From Bacteroidales bacterium (GTDB lineage Bacteria; Bacteroidota; Bacteroidia; Bacteroidales; F082): DNA of 64,000 nucleotides. Both the position numbers and the translations under genes were made by a program. Positions 42,584 to 61,505 of the stretch are shown piece by piece. The stretch's first letter is position 1. Each line of letters opens with the position of its first letter. The notes under the pieces are model-generated. The model had not been told where the DNA came from. It saw only the letters and a program-made list of their open reading frames with translations, and did not search any database. The stretch is taken from contig JAEFAE010000002.1 of NCBI GenBank assembly GCA_016291135.1, forward strand, positions 1 to 64,000, given 5' to 3'.

Positions 42584-45067
42584 ATGGGCAATCATAAAAC
42601 AAACCGCTTTTCACCTTCGGCCCTTCGTCCTTTTTTAGCGTTCCTCTTTTGGATGCTGGTCTTCGGCTTTGCTGTCCGACTTTTTGAGGCGGCTTTGCTG
42701 GGCTATTACCAGGAGCAGTTTTGGAAGCAACTCGCCCTGTGTTTGAAGGGTTTCTGTTACGATGTGTTGTTTTTCAGCAAACTCGCGCTTATCCTCTGCC
42801 CCCTGTATCTGTTGATCCATCGTTTTTCGAGAAAGGCCGCCCGATGGACCTTTTGCATCATCGGCACCATGATGTTGCTGATTTCCAATGCAATGATTAT
42901 GTACTACATCTCGGCGATGATGCCTTTGGACAAAGTCTTTTTCGACTATTCGGTGAAAGAGCTGATCTATATTTCCCAATCCACCGGCGCTTTCGTCTGG
43001 TGGGGCTACGTCGGCCTCTTGCTCATCCCCGCCTTGTTTTTCATCGTCTATGGCATCCTCAAAAAAGAACCCTTTCCACTTTACCTCCCTTCGGTCGGTG
43101 AGGGCTTACGCCGTTCCACGCTCCACTTTCCACTTTATCTTTGGCTCGCCCTTGCCCTTCTCGGTCTCTTTGTCTGGGACGTTCCCGTTTGGGCTTATAG
43201 CAACCGTGAAGGCAAGAACACCATCTGTAACAAGCAGGAGTTCTTCTGGAAAAGCCTGATCCGGACCGAGGCGCCTTTCTCACGTTTCGACCCGAAGGAC
43301 TTGGAACAACAGCGCGACCGCATACAGACCTTCCAATCTTTCTTCCCTGAGGACGAGTTTGTGGATTACCGTTATCCGTTTGCCCATGTTGACCATTCGC
43401 CCGATGTGCTCTCGCAGTATTTCGATTTGAATCCCGATACGATGCCGAATCTGGTGTTCATCATCACCGAGGGGCTAAGCCGTGAGTTCAGCGGTCCGAA
43501 CAGCAAATTCCCTTCGGCCACTCCCTTCCTCGATTCGCTGGCCGACCACAGCCTTTCGTGGCTTAACTGCATGTCGTCGTCGCAACGTACCATCGCCGTG
43601 CTGCCTAGCCTGTTCGGCAGCCTGCCCTTTGGCAAACGGGGCTTCATGCAGTCGCCCGACTGTCCCCGTTTTTACTCTTTGCCCGGCATCTTGAAGGACA
43701 ATGGCTATGAGACTTCTTTCTTCTATGGCGGCTGGACCTGTTTCGACGATATGTGCTATTTCCTGAACGATATGGGTATCGACCATTATCTGCCGGAATA
43801 CACCAGCTATCCTCAAGAGATGCAAAACACCTGGGGCCTCTACGACGAATACCTCTTCTCCGAATCCCTCAAAGAAAGGAACCTTTCACCTTTCACCTCT
43901 CACCTCTCACCTCATCTCGATATCTACCTCACCTTGTCCACCCACGATCCCTTTGACTACCCCGACAAAGCACGTTACACGAAGATCTATACCGACAAGT
44001 TGATCCAAAACCACAAACAGCATAACATCGAACAATTCCAGTATGAGCAATACGCCTCTTATCTCTATTACGACGACTGTTTGAGGAAGTTCTTCGACGC
44101 ATATCGTCAGCTGCCCGGTTTTGAAAACACAATCTTCATCATCACCGGCGACCATTGCTTCAACGGCAAGTCGGAGGAACTTGACAAATATCATGTGCCT
44201 TTTGTTATCTGGTCGCCCATGCTCAAGGAAGCACATCGTTTTCCAGCCATAATTTCCCATCGCGACGTGACCCCTTCGTTCTTGGCCATGATGAAACAGG
44301 TTTACGGCATCCAGTCGCCCTCTGTGGTGAGTTGGCTTAATACAGGCTTGGACACGTGTTCTCACTTCCGGTCGAACACTTTTACGCCTCAGCTGAAAAA
44401 CTCCCGCAAAATGGACAATATGGTCTATAAGGACTATTATTACGACGAGGGGATGGTGTTCAAGTTTGGTTTTGAGGATGACAAACTGACGATCACTCCG
44501 GTCAACAACGAAGCGATGCTGAATTTTGTGAAAGAATACAAAGCCATGGATGACTATGTGATGCGGAACGACGCCTTGGTGAAACTGGATGAGGACAAAC
44601 AGCAGCTGCTGGTGTCTGTTGACAGCACCCAGAGCGTGAATCACGTGCTTCTTAACAGCTATACAAGGCCGATCGACACCTTGGATCATCACAATTGTTT
44701 TGTGTTCAACGGAATCTATCCATTCACCTTGTTCAGCGAAGTCCTGGACGACACCCTTCAGTCGGTGGTGGTGTATTGTAGTTTCGATATCTTCATTCCC
44801 CGCGGAGATGATAAAGAGAAAATCGCTTTGGGCTTTTCCATCGACCGTTTGGATGGACGGCGGGAACTGCTGAAGACGCTGGTGATCAACTACGATTGGT
44901 ATGAGTATTACGATCAATGGCAGCATTACTCTTTGACGCAAACCTTTAACCGCGCTCAGTTGAAATATCTGACAGGGGAGAAGCTGATGGCCTATTTTGG
45001 AAATGGCGGCGAGCGCACCTTTGTTTTGTCGGATTTTAATCTTAAAGTGGTGGGGATCAATGAATAA
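42584..45067 (+). CDS. LtaS-like phosphotransferase (sulfatase fold) 1
   Basis: An 827-residue membrane enzyme of the alkaline phosphatase/sulfatase superfamily, closest in layout to lipoteichoic acid synthase and OpgB. Five N-terminal helices (to about 215) precede the periplasmic domain. That domain shows 'NLVFIITEGLSREF' (metal Glu), 'SSQRTIAVLPSLFG' (probable Thr nucleophile) and 'IITGDHCFNG' (metal Asp/His). It may transfer glycerophosphate or phosphoethanolamine to a glycan. A C-terminal sandwich-like region (about 680-827) resembles those of its neighbours. Two repeat tracts are embedded in it. The start of LtaS-like 2 overlaps its stop. Confidence 0.8.
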   Translation: MGNHKTNRFSPSALRPFLAFLFWMLVFGFAVRLFEAALLGYYQEQFWKQLALCLKGFCYDVLFFSKLALILCPLYLLIHRFSRKAARWTFCIIGTMMLLISNAMIMYYISAMMPLDKVFFDYSVKELIYISQSTGAFVWWGYVGLLLIPALFFIVYGILKKEPFPLYLPSVGEGLRRSTLHFPLYLWLALALLGLFVWDVPVWAYSNREGKNTICNKQEFFWKSLIRTEAPFSRFDPKDLEQQRDRIQTFQSFFPEDEFVDYRYPFAHVDHSPDVLSQYFDLNPDTMPNLVFIITEGLSREFSGPNSKFPSATPFLDSLADHSLSWLNCMSSSQRTIAVLPSLFGSLPFGKRGFMQSPDCPRFYSLPGILKDNGYETSFFYGGWTCFDDMCYFLNDMGIDHYLPEYTSYPQEMQNTWGLYDEYLFSESLKERNLSPFTSHLSPHLDIYLTLSTHDPFDYPDKARYTKIYTDKLIQNHKQHNIEQFQYEQYASYLYYDDCLRKFFDAYRQLPGFENTIFIITGDHCFNGKSEELDKYHVPFVIWSPMLKEAHRFPAIISHRDVTPSFLAMMKQVYGIQSPSVVSWLNTGLDTCSHFRSNTFTPQLKNSRKMDNMVYKDYYYDEGMVFKFGFEDDKLTITPVNNEAMLNFVKEYKAMDDYVMRNDALVKLDEDKQQLLVSVDSTQSVNHVLLNSYTRPIDTLDHHNCFVFNGIYPFTLFSEVLDDTLQSVVVYCSFDIFIPRGDDKEKIALGFSIDRLDGRRELLKTLVINYDWYEYYDQWQHYSLTQTFNRAQLKYLTGEKLMAYFGNGGERTFVLSDFNLKVVGINE
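43072..43137 (+). repeat. Composite intragenic repeat element in LtaS-like 1
   Basis: CTTTCCACTTTACCTCCC followed by TTCGGTCGGTGAG matches the reverse complement of the two 47-base units at 60800-60893 in the U32 gene, with a single extra base there. TTTCCAC repeats flank it on both sides. It encodes 'FPLYLPSVGEGLRRSTLHF' in a loop between membrane helices. Confidence 0.85.
43881..43913 (+). repeat. CTTTCACC-type tract in LtaS-like 1
   Basis: Copies of acctttcacc and acctctcacc in tandem encode 'LSPFTSHLSPHL' within the periplasmic domain. The same tract on the other strand occurs in MBOAT 3 at 55121-55153. Confidence 0.7.
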
Positions 45068-47567
45068 CAAAAAATCTTTATCTATCGCACTGGCTCAATG
45101 GCTTCGTCTGAATGCCTTGTTGCTGCTGTGCATGATCGCAGTCCGTCCCCTTTTCTTTTTGGAGGTCTATTTCAGGGTAGGATTGGCTCCCATTCATTTT
45201 TTCACCATCCTTTCTGGAGCCATCTACGATCTTCTGCTGGTCTGCCGGATCTTCGCCTATGGCCTGATCCCTTTCCTGGTCTTGCATGCTTTCTTCCCTA
45301 AGACGGCTCGGGGCATCTTCATCGGCTTGATCGTATTTTATGCGGTGGTGTCGGCGTTGCTTGCCGAGTATTACTGCAACCTCACCATGCCGCTTGACCA
45401 TGTGATTTTGATGTATTCCTATCAAGATCTAAAAACCACATTGAGTTCTTCTGCCACCTTGTCGATCGGTCAGGTGATCTGGTTTTTGTTGCAGGTGGGA
45501 GTGCCGGTGGGAATCGTGGTGTGGAGTAGAAAGTGGGGAGTGAAAAGTGGAAAGAGGAGAGAGAAAAGTGGAAAGTCTTCTGTTCTACGAGGTGTTTTGG
45601 CGGTGCTAATCGTTGCTGTTGGGTTGTTGGTGCCTTACAACCGCATGATCCGGGAGGAGCGGCTATATCCTGCCCATTATGACTTCTGTCTGGCCGTGAA
45701 CCAGCCCAGTTATTCGTATATCAAGATCGCCGATTATCTGAGGAACGAGGTGTTTCGTGACGTTTTCGAAGACAGTGACTTGTTTGATGAGCACCTGAAA
45801 GAGGCAGTGGCGGCCTATCATGCTGTCCATCCTGAGTTCGAGTACGACTATCCGGATTATCCGTTTTACCGCAAGGCCACCGATCCCGATGTACTCAGTC
45901 CATTCCTCCGTCAGACCTCAGATGGCTTGCCGCCTAATTTGGTCTTCATCATCGTGGAAGGATTGGGACGCCGTTTGACGGCGGTGTGGGAACCCGTCTT
46001 GTCGTTCACGCCTTTCATCGACAGTCTGGCATCAGAAGGACTGTTCTGGCCGCAATGTCTCTCCACTGCGGAACGCACCTTCGCCGTGTTGCCTTCGGTA
46101 TTTGCCTCCGCTCCCCATGGCCGATATGGTTTTTGCACGACCCTGAGTCAGACGCCACGCCACCACTCCCTGCTCCGCGACTTGGAGCGGAACGGATACT
46201 ACTCTTCCTTCTATTATGGCGGCGAACTCACTTTCGACCACTACGATTTCTTCCTGCAGGCGAACCACGTGGACTACCTGTTCAGTCCTTCCATCGTGGT
46301 GGAGGACACCGCAAAGTCTCGTTTGCTGACCGAAAACCACCGATGGGGCCTCGATGATGATCAGCTGGTGGAGCTGGCCATCGCTCAAAAACGTCAGGAC
46401 ACCGTGACAAGGCGGCCTTTTGTGGATATGTATCTGACGCTTAGCACCCACGAGCCTTTTGTGGTGGATGACTTGGAGCATTATGAGGAACTAGCAAGGC
46501 AAAGGGTTGAAAGCACGCCCAATGTGACCGACCAGGAACGCAGCAATGTGATGAAAAACCTCAACATCTTCGCCTGTTACCTCTATATGGACGAATGCAT
46601 CCGCAACTTGTTCGCTTACTATGCCTCCCGACCTGATTTCGAGAACACCTTGTTTGTCCTTACTGGCGACCATAGGATGGCTTATTTGCCTTTTGGAAGC
46701 TCCATCCGCAAATACAACGTGCCGCTGGTGATCTACTCGCCGCTGCTGTCCCGTTCAAAGCGGATGGAAGCAGTGGTCTCGCATCTCGACATCACCCCCT
46801 CGCTCAATGCCTATCTTCACGCCAACTACAACTATGCCATTGACGACCATTGCCACTGGCTAGGCACCTCGTTCGACACCGTCTCGGAATTCCGCAATAC
46901 CCGCAAACTCGCGTTCATGCTCAACAACCGTGATGTGGTGGATTATTGTAGCGGTAATCATATCCTCAGTAATCAAAAACTGTTTCAACTGGATTCCCGT
47001 CTGGTGGAAACCAAGGATGATAACGAGAATCTGTGCAAACTCCTAATGAACGAGCTGGACAACTTCGATTTGATCAGCCGCTTTGTAGTGAAGGAAGACC
47101 TCCTGCTTCCGCGAGGTGACCAATCCAATCTCTACTCCTGTCTCTTGGACTTCGACCACAACTCCATGAGTGTCTTCGATAAATACCTGGTCAAAGACAG
47201 CGCCTTCCTGCGTGTGGGCAAGGAGGTGGAGTATTTCTCCCTGTGCTCAAATCTGGCCGTCTTGCCGATCTATGAGGATCTGTTGGTGGAGGTGTCGTTT
47301 GACATCCGGAGTGTGGACACAAGTCTCACTTTGCCCGCTCTGCGCGTCGCCTTGGGTGATGCCTACGCACAACGGAATCTCTCCGAAGTGAACGGATTGA
47401 ACACTGGTAAGTGGGAGCATTACCATGCCCGAATCCCGATGGAGGTGATCCATCAGACAGAAACCCAGGCGCTGAAACTGGTCTTGTGGAAGAAGAACTC
47501 GAGTTCGTTTGAACTGGACAACCTCGTGGTGAATGTGGAGGCTTCGTTGAGGCAGAAGGATCAATAG
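45060..47567 (+). CDS. LtaS-like phosphotransferase (sulfatase fold) 2
   Basis: An 835-residue homologue of the preceding enzyme. I start at ATG 45060, which overlaps the previous stop by 8 bases (ATGAATAA); the track start at 44997 adds 21 residues of overlap. Membrane helices occupy the first 215 residues. The catalytic domain shows 'NLVFIIVEGLGRRL', 'STAERTFAVLPSVF' and 'VLTGDHRMA'. The C-terminal region ('GKWEHYHARIPMEV', 'LKLVLWKKNSSSFELDNL') resembles that of the acyltransferase. Two such enzymes side by side suggest priming and extension, or two substrates. The stop overlaps the convergent GDPD-like gene by 7 bases. Confidence 0.8.
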   Translation: MNNKKSLSIALAQWLRLNALLLLCMIAVRPLFFLEVYFRVGLAPIHFFTILSGAIYDLLLVCRIFAYGLIPFLVLHAFFPKTARGIFIGLIVFYAVVSALLAEYYCNLTMPLDHVILMYSYQDLKTTLSSSATLSIGQVIWFLLQVGVPVGIVVWSRKWGVKSGKRREKSGKSSVLRGVLAVLIVAVGLLVPYNRMIREERLYPAHYDFCLAVNQPSYSYIKIADYLRNEVFRDVFEDSDLFDEHLKEAVAAYHAVHPEFEYDYPDYPFYRKATDPDVLSPFLRQTSDGLPPNLVFIIVEGLGRRLTAVWEPVLSFTPFIDSLASEGLFWPQCLSTAERTFAVLPSVFASAPHGRYGFCTTLSQTPRHHSLLRDLERNGYYSSFYYGGELTFDHYDFFLQANHVDYLFSPSIVVEDTAKSRLLTENHRWGLDDDQLVELAIAQKRQDTVTRRPFVDMYLTLSTHEPFVVDDLEHYEELARQRVESTPNVTDQERSNVMKNLNIFACYLYMDECIRNLFAYYASRPDFENTLFVLTGDHRMAYLPFGSSIRKYNVPLVIYSPLLSRSKRMEAVVSHLDITPSLNAYLHANYNYAIDDHCHWLGTSFDTVSEFRNTRKLAFMLNNRDVVDYCSGNHILSNQKLFQLDSRLVETKDDNENLCKLLMNELDNFDLISRFVVKEDLLLPRGDQSNLYSCLLDFDHNSMSVFDKYLVKDSAFLRVGKEVEYFSLCSNLAVLPIYEDLLVEVSFDIRSVDTSLTLPALRVALGDAYAQRNLSEVNGLNTGKWEHYHARIPMEVIHQTETQALKLVLWKKNSSSFELDNLVVNVEASLRQKDQ
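45521..45576 (+). repeat. GTGGAAA-type array in LtaS-like 2
   Basis: Tandem variants of AAAAGTGG and GAGGAGAG span 56 bases and encode 'SRKWGVKSGKRREKSGKSS', a strongly basic loop after the fourth helix. The tract is A/G-only for most of its length, unlike the surrounding codons. Confidence 0.75.
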
Positions 47568-53933: not shown

Positions 53934-55352
53934 TTAGAATCGGAAGTAGATGAAGGGATTGAAGTCGGAGACACAGAGTGCGCCAGTGGATAGGATCAGA
54001 AGAACCAGCGTGATGGCAAACATGATCCAGGATAGTCTTCGGGAATAGTGCTCGGCAAAGACGGTGTCTTGCAGCTTCTTTCCGCCCTTAGTGAGGGTGA
54101 GGAAGGAGAAAACCAAGGCGATGACGAGGGTGGCCCAGAACTGCGCATCGGCGGTTCCATGAAGGCCCTGCCTGAAGGAGAAGAGCGCAGCATAATACCC
54201 GCCTGCACCGAGGATGTCATCCGCCCTGAAGAGCACCCAGCCCATCATGACGAGGAAGAAAGTGGTGAGAGTGGAAAGTGGAAAGTGGAAAGTTTTCCGT
54301 TTTCCACTTAACAGCTTGTCGATGCAGATGAAGAATCCGTGGAAGGCTCCCCAGAGCACGAAGTTCCAGGAGGCGCCATGCCACAAGCCCGAGAGCAGGA
54401 AACAGAGCCACAAATTGAGGTACATTCGTCCTCTGCCTTTGCGGTTGCCACCCAGCGGGATGTAGAGATAATGCATGATGAAGTTACCCAGGGTCATATG
54501 CCAGCGTTTCCAGAACTCGGTGATGCTCTTGCTGGTATAAGGGTCGTTGAAGTTCTCCGGGAACCGGAAGCCCATCATCATGCCCAAGCCGATGGCCATG
54601 TCGGAATAGCCCGAGAAGTCGAAGTAGATCTGCATGGTATAGGCCAAGATGCCCAGCCAGGCGCTTCCGGTGGACAACTCGGCGTAGTTCATGCCGAAGA
54701 CCTGGTCGGCATACAAGGCCAAGGTGTTGGCGATGAGCACTTTCTTGCTCAAGCCGATGACGAAACGGTAAAAGCCCAGGGCTCGGCCTTCCATGGTGCT
54801 CTCGCGAGAGACCAGCTGTTCGGCCACGGTATTGTAGTTGACGATGGGACCGGCGATGAGCTGGGGAAACATCATGATGTACACCACATAGTCGGTGAGC
54901 TTCTTGCTGGGAGGGGTCGTGCCGCGAAACACGTCGAGGGTATAAGTGATCGACTGGAAGGTGAAGAACGAGATGCCAATGGGCAAGGCCACCTTCATCC
55001 AACCAACGGGCTCATGGTGGAACCAGCCAATGATAGCGTTGAGGTTTTCCATGAGAAAGTTGGCGTATTTGAAATAGATCAACAGCCCTAGCGACATGAT
55101 GATGGAAAGGGCACACAAAACACCTTTCATCTTTAACCTTTCACCTTTCACCTTCGCCATACCTCGCACCAAAAAATAGTTGATGATGCATTCTCCCACC
55201 AGCACCAACACAAAATCGGGTGCTCCATAGGCATAAAAGACCAGGGAAAATAGCAACAGGGTATAGTTCCTGAATTTCCGCGGGGTGAGATAATACACTA
55301 TTAGAAATATGGGTAGGAAAAAGAAAAGAAATATGTTACTACTGAATACCAT
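53934..55352 (-). CDS. MBOAT O-acyltransferase 3 (AlgI/DltB-like)
   Basis: A 472-residue membrane acyltransferase. Signatures are 'MVFSSNIFLFFFLPIFLIVY', 'EFWKRWHMTLGNFIMHYLYI' and 'GLWHGASWNFVLWG'. It is very close to MBOAT 1. Two repeat tracts lie in its loops: 'KVKGERLKMKG' (55121-55153) and 'GKRKTFHFPLST' (54262-54309). It has AlgJ-like 4 two bases upstream and AlgJ-like 3 three bases downstream, so either may be its acceptor partner. Confidence 0.92.
   Translation of the reverse strand: MVFSSNIFLFFFLPIFLIVYYLTPRKFRNYTLLLFSLVFYAYGAPDFVLVLVGECIINYFLVRGMAKVKGERLKMKGVLCALSIIMSLGLLIYFKYANFLMENLNAIIGWFHHEPVGWMKVALPIGISFFTFQSITYTLDVFRGTTPPSKKLTDYVVYIMMFPQLIAGPIVNYNTVAEQLVSRESTMEGRALGFYRFVIGLSKKVLIANTLALYADQVFGMNYAELSTGSAWLGILAYTMQIYFDFSGYSDMAIGLGMMMGFRFPENFNDPYTSKSITEFWKRWHMTLGNFIMHYLYIPLGGNRKGRGRMYLNLWLCFLLSGLWHGASWNFVLWGAFHGFFICIDKLLSGKRKTFHFPLSTLTTFFLVMMGWVLFRADDILGAGGYYAALFSFRQGLHGTADAQFWATLVIALVFSFLTLTKGGKKLQDTVFAEHYSRRLSWIMFAITLVLLILSTGALCVSDFNPFIYFRF
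54262..54309 (-). repeat. GTGGAAA array with inverted arm in MBOAT 3
   Basis: Three tandem copies of GTGGAAA are followed by TTTTCCGTTTTCCACTT, so the tract can fold back on itself (AAGTGGAAA/TTTCCACTT). It encodes a loop before a conserved helix. Confidence 0.75.
55121..55153 (-). repeat. CTTTCACC-type tract in MBOAT 3
   Basis: Tandem acctttca/acctttcacc units encode 'KVKGERLKMKG', a basic loop after the third helix. On the opposite coding strand the same unit occurs in LtaS-like 1 at 43881-43913. Confidence 0.7.
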
Positions 55353-59456: not shown

Positions 59457-61505
59457 ATGAAAAATACCAGGATTGAGCTTCTTTCGCCCGCCAAAGACGT
59501 GGAAGTGGGTATCGCCGCCATCAACCACGGGGCGGATGCCGTCTATATCGGGGGTCCCGCCTTCGGGGCTCGGGAGAAGGCCGGCAACAGCATCGCCGAC
59601 ATCGAGCGGCTGTGCCGTCATGCGGCCTTGTTCGATGCCAAGGTGTATGTTACTTTGAACACCTTGCTCTACGATAGTGAGTTGGAACAAGCTCGTCGGA
59701 TCGCCCTTGACTGCTGGAATGCCGGGGTCGATGCTTTGATTGTGCAGGACATGGCCCTGTTGCAGATGGATTTGCCCATCCCTTTGCATGCCAGCACGCA
59801 ATGCGATAACATGACGGTGGAGAAGGTTCATTTTCTGGAGTCGGTGGGCTTTTCGCAAGTGGTGTTGGGTCGTGAGCTCACGATCGACCAGATCCGTGAG
59901 ATCCGGCAGCACACCACGGTGCCTTTGGAATTTTTCGTGCATGGGGCCTTGTGTGTGAGCCATAGTGGGCAGTGTTATCTGAGTCACTATATCGGCAACC
60001 GTTCGGCCAACCGAGGTGCTTGTGCCCAGCCTTGCCGACTTCCTTGGGATTTGGTGGCTTCTTCCTTGTCCTCTTCCCAAGGGAGGGAGGAGACCCTGAT
60101 TAAAGGAAAGCACCTTCTATGCTTAAAGGATTTGAACAACAGCACCCATCTCGAAGAATTGATGGATGCGGGCATCACGAGTTTCAAGATCGAAGGCCGT
60201 TTGAAAGACGCTGATTATGTAAAGAATGTGACTGCTTTTTACCGGCAGTTGCTGGATGCGATCTTCGAGCGTCGTCCTGAGTATGTCCAAGCCTCGCTCG
60301 GTCATGGTAGCTTTGATTTCGAGGTGAACCCTTCAAAGTCGTTCAACCGGGGCTTCACCGACTATTTCATTCACGGTCGCCAGCCAGGTATCGGTTCCCC
60401 CGATACGCCCAAGTCGATGGGCGAATACATCGGGGTGGTGAAATGGTGCAATTCCGTCCAGATGGAAATCCAATTGGATCCTATAGCGGCGCTTGGCCAG
60501 GTGTCGCTGCACAATGGGGATGGTTTGTGTTTCCTAAATGATGATGGGGAGCTGGTTGGTATCCGCGCCGATGTGGTACGGAATGGTACGGACCCGGTAC
60601 GGAAAGGTACGGATGCGGTACGGAAAGGTACGGACGCCGTTTGTAAGGTGGTCACCAATCGGCCTCACGGAGCCTCCCGCGGCACGCGCATCTATAGGAA
60701 TTATGACCTTGAATGGCAGAAACAAGTGGATGCTTCCAAAGGCAACCGCAAGATCGATATCGCCTTGGTGTTGTCGGAAACGGAAGAAGGCTATGAGTTA
60801 AGTGGAAAGTTGAACCCCGAAGGGCTCACCGACCGAATGGGAGGTAAAGTGGAAAGTGGAACCCCGGAGGGCTCACCGACCGAATGGGAGGTAAAGTTTT
60901 CCGTTTTCCGTTTTACACTTTCCACTCCCAAGATCGTCGCCACCAACCCGGAGAAGGCCTCGGAGAACATCCGCAAGAAGGCCCTGCAGTGGGGCGACAC
61001 GGTGTTCAATCCCGTAAACCTAGAGCTGCGTTTTTCTCAGCCTTATCTGATCCCTGCCTCTGTGCTTGGGGAGTTGAAACGGGGCTTGGTGGAACGGTTA
61101 ACCGAAGTGTTGATCGATCGGCATCATCGTTCTCGATTAGGGAAAGCGGTTCTTGCTAAGGAGGGCGCTTCTTCTGAGTCGCGGATATCTTCCGGAGGAG
61201 CATCTGCGCCCGCCCCGTATCCTACCTCCCAACTGTCCTATCAAGGCAATGTCACCAACCATTTGGCGGAGGCCTTCTATCGTTCGCATGGGGTAGCGGA
61301 AATCGAGGAAGCCTTGGAGAAGTCGTTCTCGAAGCAACCCGGTCTGACCTTGATGACCACCCACCATTGTATCCGTTTCGCCAACGGAATGTGTTTGAAA
61401 AACCACCCCGCTTACACGGGTCCATTAACGATCCGCAACGGATCCAACACCTTCCGGTTGGAATTTGATTGCAAGCATTGTCTTATGAAAGTTATCTCAA
61501 TTTAA
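59457..61505 (+). CDS. U32 family peptidase-like protein (RlhA/YhbU type)
   Basis: A 682-residue protein with the U32 signature 'EFFVHGALCVSHSGQCYLS' (about 162-180) and 'RGACAQPCRLPW'. The N-terminal TIM-like part begins 'IELLSPAKDVEVGIAAINHG'. Once called collagenase-like, many U32 proteins in fact act in RNA modification; the long form with a C-terminal extension is like E. coli RlhA (23S rRNA C2501 hydroxylation). A conserved Cys set is present. About 45 residues between the domains come from a repeat element read in two frames (60796-60930). It is monocistronic and divergent from the AlgJ operon. Confidence 0.85.
   Translation: MKNTRIELLSPAKDVEVGIAAINHGADAVYIGGPAFGAREKAGNSIADIERLCRHAALFDAKVYVTLNTLLYDSELEQARRIALDCWNAGVDALIVQDMALLQMDLPIPLHASTQCDNMTVEKVHFLESVGFSQVVLGRELTIDQIREIRQHTTVPLEFFVHGALCVSHSGQCYLSHYIGNRSANRGACAQPCRLPWDLVASSLSSSQGREETLIKGKHLLCLKDLNNSTHLEELMDAGITSFKIEGRLKDADYVKNVTAFYRQLLDAIFERRPEYVQASLGHGSFDFEVNPSKSFNRGFTDYFIHGRQPGIGSPDTPKSMGEYIGVVKWCNSVQMEIQLDPIAALGQVSLHNGDGLCFLNDDGELVGIRADVVRNGTDPVRKGTDAVRKGTDAVCKVVTNRPHGASRGTRIYRNYDLEWQKQVDASKGNRKIDIALVLSETEEGYELSGKLNPEGLTDRMGGKVESGTPEGSPTEWEVKFSVFRFTLSTPKIVATNPEKASENIRKKALQWGDTVFNPVNLELRFSQPYLIPASVLGELKRGLVERLTEVLIDRHHRSRLGKAVLAKEGASSESRISSGGASAPAPYPTSQLSYQGNVTNHLAEAFYRSHGVAEIEEALEKSFSKQPGLTLMTTHHCIRFANGMCLKNHPAYTGPLTIRNGSNTFRLEFDCKHCLMKVISI
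60796..60930 (+). repeat. Duplicated composite repeat element inside the U32 gene
   Basis: Two 47-base units start at 60800 and 60847 (aagtggaaagt..., ctcaccgaccgaatgggagg) and differ at two positions by eye. A TTTTCCGTTTTCCG and TTTACACTTTCCACT arm follows. Because 47 is not a multiple of three, the first unit reads 'NPEGLTDRMGG' and the second 'TPEGSPTEWEV'. The reverse complement of the same unit lies in LtaS-like 1 (43072-43137). Confidence 0.9.

What the first reader, a model, noticed from the sequence alone, without database searches (positions are those of the whole stretch)
60796..60930. Tandem 47-base units in the U32 gene are translated in two different frames
The period of 47 is not a multiple of three, so the two near-identical DNA units give different peptides (NPEGLTDRMGG and TPEGSPTEWEV). 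Neither contains a stop. Selection therefore kept the DNA unit open in more than one frame, or the duplication is very recent. With the antisense reading in LtaS-like 1 the unit is open in at least three of six frames. This fits a nucleic-acid element adapted to live in genes better than a protein repeat.
Basis: seen in the sequence. Interest (0 to 1): 0.8.

Follow-up and report, generated by a model that had tools for sequence, protein, structure and literature searches.

The report
Tiny repeat inserted twice in gene
The two "47-base units" are two copies of a 33-base wandering DNA repeat that landed, without breaking the reading frame, in a run of 7-base repeats inside a floppy loop of a rumen-type bacterium's protein; the same repeat sits in dozens of other genes and gaps of related species, which makes it a candidate for one of the smallest mobile DNA elements known.

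Summary
In detail: two 94%-identical units of 47 bp at 60797-60890 in the U32 gene are read in two frames. The reading of it changes. The unit is 33 + 14 bp: a 33-bp dispersed cassette (AACCCCGAAGGGCTCACCGACCGAAYGGGAGGT) plus two heptamers. The cassette was found at 68 places in 11 of 99 genomes of the genus and in none of about 388 other genomes of the order. It nearly always sits inside another repeat: heptamer arrays, always at GG^AA or a close variant, or CATTGCGAG palindromes, at recurring AA sites. Three related species have the same U32 loop with the array but no cassette. That loop is 150 nt against 216 here, a difference of exactly 2 x 33. So the copies are two frame-neutral 33-bp insertions, not a 47-bp duplication (230 nt, out of frame). 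Two frames follow from the 14-nt spacing; the Vsr genes of two species repeat the pattern. Open frames (3-4 of 6) are what shuffles give, so selection for multi-frame openness is not supported. The same U32 loop holds three unrelated repeat families across the genus. The architecture resembles cyanobacterial small dispersed repeats, but here inside essential genes. How the cassette moves is unproven.

The parts
59457..61505 (+). Host gene: U32 family peptidase with DUF3656 (682 aa)
   Evidence: ORF; Pfam PF01136 E 2.3e-75 and PF12392 E 6e-12; 73 related loci
60797..60812 (+). 5' heptamer stretch of the host array (..AAGTGGAAAGTTG) before cassette 1
   Evidence: Sequence; array-only form of the same loop in L014, L018, L044
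60813..60845 (+). Cassette 1, 33 bp, AACCCCGAAGGGCTCACCGACCGAATGGGAGGT, read as NPEGLTDRMGG
   Evidence: Exact match, followed by AA; frame
60846..60859 (+). Two heptamers (AAAGTGG)2 separating the cassettes; this 14-nt spacer, not divisible by 3, sets the second frame
   Evidence: 47 = 33 + 14
60860..60892 (+). Cassette 2, 33 bp (one mismatch to the consensus), read as TPEGSPTEWEV
   Evidence: One-mismatch match; frame
60893..60926 (+). 3' part of the heptamer array, in inverted orientation (TTTTCCGTTTTCCGTTTTACACTTTCCACT)
   Evidence: Inverted repeats I1/I2; heptamer array
43083..43115 (-). Third, diverged cassette of the window, antisense inside the LtaS-like sulfatase gene, also in an AGTGGAA heptamer array
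   Evidence: sulfatase domain PF00884

Best explanation
The segment is two copies of a 33-bp dispersed cassette, each inserted separately into a pre-existing array of 7-bp repeats that occupies a flexible loop between two strands of the DUF3656 part of a U32 protein. Shown: 33 is divisible by three, so each insertion leaves the frame downstream intact; the cassette is stop-free in two of three sense frames; and because the two landing sites are two heptamers (14 nt) apart, the copies are translated in two frames. Also shown: the same cassette is scattered through 11 species of the genus, almost always inside heptamer arrays or CATTGCGAG palindromes, with AA at both edges. Inferred: the 33-mer is itself the moving unit and is moved by a recombinase or transposase acting in trans, which joins it at an AA (GG^AA in heptamers) and prefers repeat arrays. 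Copies that break proteins are lost, and those in tolerant loops and termini survive. The element is probably selfish, and the encoded peptides are tolerated rather than used.
For: Dispersal: 7 pattern matches in the own genome, 68 places in 11 of 99 genus genomes with no read-backwards control match, and none in about 388 other genomes of the order. Host repeats and junctions: in the heptamer class 39 of 39 measurable copies are exactly 33 nt and the heptamer resumes in register; AA...AA edges in 66 of 67 measurable copies. Empty sites: the U32 loop is 216 nt here and 150 nt in L014, L018 and L044, which carry the array without cassette; the difference is 2 x 33. Vsr loop: 141 nt in G000 and in G023 = 108 nt (array-only relatives) + 33, with the cassette two heptamers apart and read in the two different frames. 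MurE: 204 = 150 (array only, G448) + 33 + 21. The 33-mer as unit: in G008 the identical 33-mer lies in 6 heptamer arrays and in 6 palindromes whose flanks share only AA; in L170 two cassettes sit at two different sites of one palindrome. Tolerance: the loop is among the three lowest-confidence segments of a good model (456-480 below pLDDT 50; mean 85.7) between strands 445-452 and 483-489. In-frame copies lie in PurA, MurE, Vsr, HemN-type, AroE, LptD, FtsK, RNase H and MBOAT proteins.
Against: No transposase was linked to it: PF01797 is present in 9 of 11 carriers and 13 of 19 non-carriers, and no cassette lies within the stretches held around the Y1 genes examined. No terminal inverted repeats and no unusual fold (z about 0.2 to 0.4). 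Near-total confinement to arrays, with an AAAACGG heptamer following in 35 of 40, would also follow from homologous exchange between arrays. At the palindrome site GCGAG^AA the native form (GCGAG-GAG-CGGAGC) is not restored by removing 33 nt. All data come from draft assemblies, mostly metagenomic, without strain-level polymorphism.
Confidence: 0.75

Rival explanations
1. The cassette has no transposase. Once present in one array it spreads by homologous exchange, strand annealing or template switching between the many similar heptamer arrays (and between palindromes), so that the array homology carries it. This replaces only the mechanism step of the best explanation, not the two-insertion history.
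For: Almost always inside arrays; always at the same heptamer phase; most copies have AACGG before and AAAACGG after. No linked recombinase found.
Against: Identical 33-mers lie in two unrelated hosts in one genome. Copies in AGTGGAA/AGTTGAA arrays keep local flanks (L001, L089, L101). Two cassettes at different sites of one palindrome (L170).
Confidence: 0.35
2. A single cassette followed by a 47-bp tandem duplication by slippage in the U32 gene.
For: The units are adjacent and 94% identical.
Against: From the 150-nt empty loop it predicts 230 nt and a shifted frame; 216 nt is observed. It would need a further compensating loss of 14 nt.
Confidence: 0.08
3. The peptide made by the cassette is useful (a selected linker or loop), so that coding function drives its spread.
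For: Copies in genes lie mostly in the sense orientation, which gives polar peptides (31 of 40, P 0.0007).
Against: Two sense frames are used about equally (16 and 15), plus antisense frames, in unrelated proteins. The same U32 loop holds unrelated repeats in other species. 32 of 72 copies have no ORF of 180 aa or more.
Confidence: 0.06
4. Assembly artefact of a metagenome contig.
For: The source is a draft assembly of 60 contigs, 83% complete; no reads were seen.
Against: The array is under 100 bp; the frame stays open over 682 aa; the same cassette occurs in 11 genomes; doubled copies occur in L170 too.
Confidence: 0.03

Closest known systems
Small dispersed repeats (SDRs) of Nostoc and relatives (Elhai et al. 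2008, Genome Res 18:1484; seen only as a citation; content from memory)
   Same: Very short dispersed sequence confined to one clade; embedded in tandem heptamers or in other small elements; nested insertions; no encoded transposase
   Different: 33 nt rather than 21-27; unrelated sequence and phylum; AA edges; many copies in frame inside housekeeping genes; no special secondary structure
Rickettsia palindromic elements (RPE)
   Same: In-frame insertion into unrelated metabolic genes, thought to be tolerated (PMC10969869)
   Different: RPEs are about 150 bp palindromes; this is a 33-bp non-palindrome that enters genes through other repeats
REP/REPIN elements, GTAG and CGTC families (PMC3733652, PMC3116915)
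   Same: Short dispersed non-autonomous repeats, sometimes intragenic; CATTGCGAG..GGCAATCCA, one of its two host repeats, looks like a CGTC-type REP
   Different: The cassette has no hairpin stem with a GTAG or CGTC tag and no linked RAYT; it is a guest inside such repeats
Heptameric tandem repeats of bacteria (PMC4692102)
   Same: The host arrays here are heptamer repeats, often inverted
   Different: Described mainly as intergenic in Xanthomonas and Nostoc; here they are also translated and serve as landing pads
MITEs
   Same: Non-coding, dispersed, presumably moved in trans
   Different: No terminal inverted repeats; far shorter than 70-300 bp

Membership tests
Small dispersed repeats (SDR, Elhai 2008) | Short sequence dispersed in the genome and confined to a clade | tested here: met
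   68 places in 11 of 99 genus genomes; none in about 388 others of the order
Small dispersed repeats (SDR, Elhai 2008) | Often embedded in tandem heptamers or other small elements (criterion from memory) | tested here: met
   At least 40 of 72 in heptamer arrays and 24 in CATTGCGAG palindromes; several of the remaining 8 are heptamer arrays by eye
Small dispersed repeats (SDR, Elhai 2008) | Length 21-27 nt (from memory) | tested here: not met
   33 nt in 57 of 67 measured copies, range 30-39
Small dispersed repeats (SDR, Elhai 2008) | Shared secondary structure (SDR4-6, from memory) | tested here: not met
   Folding no better than shuffles, z 0.20 and 0.43
REP/REPIN with RAYT | Palindromic stem with GTAG or CGTC tag | tested here: not met
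   No stem of that kind; sequence
REP/REPIN with RAYT | Linked Y1 transposase (RAYT) | tested here: not met
   No cassette in 11 Y1 loci examined; Y1 presence does not follow cassette presence
MITE | Terminal inverted repeats | tested here: not met
   Ends AACCCC...GAGGT are not inverted repeats
MITE | Target-site duplication | tested here: inconclusive
   AA at both edges in 66 of 67; could be a 2-bp duplication or a fixed end
Rickettsia palindromic elements | In-frame insertion in functional genes | tested here: met
   Pfam-supported genes with in-frame copies
Rickettsia palindromic elements | About 150 bp palindrome | tested here: not met
   33 bp, not palindromic
Protein repeat or conserved domain | Same peptide conserved across orthologues | tested here: not met
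   Loop absent, different or of other repeat origin in 73 relatives

The most novel reading that the evidence does not exclude
The 33-mer is an actively mobile element, among the smallest known, with a dedicated but unidentified machinery that joins it at AA inside repeat arrays. It spreads through essential genes because its length is a multiple of three, it is open in four of six frames, and it enters only arrays that already sit in tolerant protein loops, giving a three-level nesting (loop, array, cassette).
Probability: 0.3. Interest if true: 0.85.

Novelty: new variant of a known kind. Interest (0 to 1): 0.62.

Why it matters
It extends the idea of minimal nested mobile repeats from cyanobacteria to Bacteroidota and shows them living in frame inside essential enzymes. 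The genus offers a natural series for one and the same loop (empty, array only, array plus one or two cassettes, and two other repeat families), with exact length arithmetic. That makes two open questions testable: how elements of about 30 bp move, and how selfish DNA supplies new protein segments.

Tried and rejected
47-bp duplication: rejected by length arithmetic. Protein repeat or domain: rejected by 73 relatives. Selection for multi-frame openness: open-frame counts equal to shuffles. Structured RNA: no Rfam match and no stable fold. RAYT/IS200-type linkage: one Y1 gene in this genome, flanked by other REPs, no association over 30 genomes and no nearby cassette. Phage vehicle: no exact match in the IMG/VR viral contigs. 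Elhai 2008 is not held in the paper library, so its content is from memory. A first Pfam call failed for wrong coordinates. A Foldseek search of the U32 model only confirmed weak TIM-barrel-like matches led by a U32 peptidase and added nothing about the loop.

Full report
WHAT WAS CHECKED. Tandem Repeats Finder and the repeat finder both report two 47-nt copies at 60797-60843 and 60844-60890, 94% identical. They lie in a 682-aa ORF, 59457-61505 on the plus strand, with Pfam U32 peptidase and DUF3656 domains. The two copies are read in different frames, as NPEGLTDRMGG and TPEGSPTEWEV.

WHAT THE UNIT IS. A search of the window's own genome with the region found more places with the core, and a pattern search found seven matches against one in the read-backwards control. 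In the genus, 68 places in 11 of 99 genomes match CTCACCGACCGAANGGGAGGTAA with at most three mismatches, with no control match. The longer pattern AACCCC...GGAGGTAA matched none of about 388 genomes of other genera of the order. I collected 72 distinct copies with flanks. The constant part is 33 nt, AACCCCGAAGGGCTCACCGACCGAAYGGGAGGT, followed by AA. The rest of the finding's 47-nt unit is 14 nt of a heptamer array, (AAAGTGG)2.

WHERE IT SITS. By a simple automatic rule 40 of 72 copies lie in heptamer arrays of types (AAAACGG)n or (AAAGTGG)n, 24 in CATTGCGAG...GGCAATCC palindromes, and 8 were left unclassified; several of those 8 are clearly heptamer arrays too, including window copy 2, L002 and L137. 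In the heptamer class the cassette was exactly 33 nt in all 39 measurable copies. It usually follows AACGG (29 of 40) or a close variant, and it is followed by AAAACGG or AAAGTGG in 39 of 40, so removing 33 nt restores the heptamer register. AA stands at both edges in 66 of 67 measurable copies. The search pattern included the downstream AA but tolerated its loss; the upstream AA was not part of it. In palindromes the recurring sites are GCGAG^AA, GTGGC^AATCC and CTCGC^AATGAC. At the last two, removal restores the native palindrome (removing 31 nt in several CTCGC copies). At the first it does not exactly, since uninterrupted copies read GCGAG-GAG-CGGAGC. L170 carries two cassettes at two sites of one palindrome. 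In genome G008 the identical 33-mer lies in six heptamer arrays and six palindromes. This is the best evidence that the 33-mer itself is the unit that moves.

EMPTY SITES. The U32 loop from NRK to NPEKA is 216 nt in the window. In L014, L018 and L044, which come from three other species, it is 150 nt and consists of an inverted heptamer array without cassette, for example GAACGGAGAACGGAGAACGGAGAACGGAAAACTTTCCGTTTTCCGTTCTCCGTTCTCC. The difference is 66 = 2 x 33. A 47-bp duplication after one insertion would give 230 nt and a shifted frame. Two separate insertions into an existing array are therefore the simplest account. The two frames follow, because the landing sites are 14 nt apart and each 33-bp insertion leaves the frame alone. 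Vsr repeats this: the loop is 141 nt in G000 (L195) and in G023 (L196), against 108 nt in species with an array only (L211, L212, L215, L220). The cassette lies two heptamers apart in the two orthologues and is read as NPEGLTDRMGG in one and TPKGSPTEWEV in the other. In MurE the loop is 204 nt with the cassette (L225) and 150 nt with an array only (L228). That is a difference of 33 + 21, and 21 is three heptamers, the smallest frame-neutral change of an array.

FRAMES AND SELECTION. As cut, the window's units are open in 3 and 4 of 6 frames; shuffles give means of 3.4 and 4.0. So openness needs no explanation. Of 72 copies, 40 lie in ORFs of at least 180 aa, some of which may be spurious (for example L168, without a Pfam match). 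Of these, 31 are in sense and 9 in antisense orientation (two-sided P 0.0007). The 31 sense copies use two frames about equally (16 and 15) and never the third, which ends in TAA at the downstream junction. The simplest reading is loss of copies that break or damage proteins. The sense excess may reflect that the sense peptides are polar, but this was not tested further.

THE PROTEINS. Copies lie in frame in proteins with clear Pfam domains: Vsr, MBOAT (several), S41 peptidase, HemN-type, adenylosuccinate synthetase, MurE, shikimate dehydrogenase, RNase H, LptD, transglutaminase, FG-GAP, FtsK, and a GreA-like protein; and near the ends of EamA and HlyD-type proteins. Alignment to solved structures places the insertions in gaps of MurE, Vsr and PurA alignments. 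An AlphaFold2 model of the window's U32 protein has mean pLDDT 85.7. Its three segments below 50 are residues 379-391, 456-480 and 571-581. The second is the cassette region, lying between strands 445-452 and 483-489; the first falls in the 21-bp repeat at 60575-60635.

THE SAME LOOP ACROSS SPECIES. Among relatives from the search for related loci, the U32 loop holds heptamer arrays in 9, GTAGAGACG palindromes in 18, CATTGCGAG-type repeats in 7 and both palindrome types in 1. The more distant relatives whose loop could be read (L045-L059, L079) have a constant 144-147 nt loop without any of these (simple motif rules, so counts are approximate). The loop is a shared landing place for unrelated repeats, which again speaks against a function of any one peptide.

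HOW IT MAY WORK. Shown: dispersal, nesting in repeats, AA edges, 33-nt steps, frame neutrality, tolerance in loops. Not shown: movement as such and the machinery. A recombinase acting in trans that joins the 33-mer at AA within arrays explains the two unrelated hosts and the doubled sites. Homologous exchange between arrays explains the restriction to arrays. For the mechanism step alone I put these at about 0.55 and 0.35. A Y1/RAYT link was looked for and not found; the fold is unremarkable.

COMPARISON. The nearest known kind is the cyanobacterial small dispersed repeats of Elhai et al. 2008, which by my memory of the abstract are 21-27 nt, often embedded in tandem heptamers or minitransposons, and nested; the paper is not held here and was seen only as a citation. 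This cassette works like an SDR but is longer, lacks their structure, and is often intragenic and in frame, as in Rickettsia palindromic elements (PMC10969869) and intragenic REPs (PMC3733652). I found no description of this family, but the library searched is only part of the literature. Hence: new variant of a known kind.

Noticed in passing
window 60575-60635: A second variable loop of the same U32 protein holds three 21-bp repeats (GGTACGGAAAGGTACGGACCC); relatives carry other repeats there, such as CVPAVGK..GNCGDAVADN-encoding ones. The AlphaFold model is poor there too (379-391).
   Followed up: partly
window 43881-43908, 54267-54287, 55121-55155, 45525-45575: More heptamer arrays (ACCTTTC, GAGAGTG, CACCTTT types) and a 21-bp (3 x 7) array, at least two of them in ORFs.
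   Followed up: no
L114 (own genome, contig 10), 950-2350: The single Y1 transposase gene of the genome is flanked by arrays of its own REP-like repeats (ACCCCGTTAGGGGTGCGCTGTCGGTAGCCAGGGGTTCC; CGACAGGTCGCCCCTACGGGGCG), as expected for a RAYT.
   Followed up: partly
L102:251-1753 (minus), genome G008: An MBOAT gene with two cassettes in frame at residues 69-80 and 364-375; at the second place the protein of L112 has the heptamer-type peptide without cassette and L135 (G023) has it with one.
   Followed up: partly
L126:1351-2361, genome G465: A shikimate dehydrogenase gene with several repeat insertions in frame: cassette in a palindrome, a CATTGCGAG-type repeat (RHCEGGTTEAIQ) and a heptamer-type stretch (LTPHSSPLTPHSPLLTPHS).
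   Followed up: no
L174 about 1000 (minus), genome G448: The cassette splits a third kind of palindrome at its centre: TTGCGCCCCG^AACGGGCAA.
   Followed up: no
U32 and Vsr loops of many relatives (for example L209, L213, L218): A palindrome GTAGAGACG..CGTCTCTAC is translated in the same loops, apparently another gene-tolerated repeat family of this genus.
   Followed up: partly
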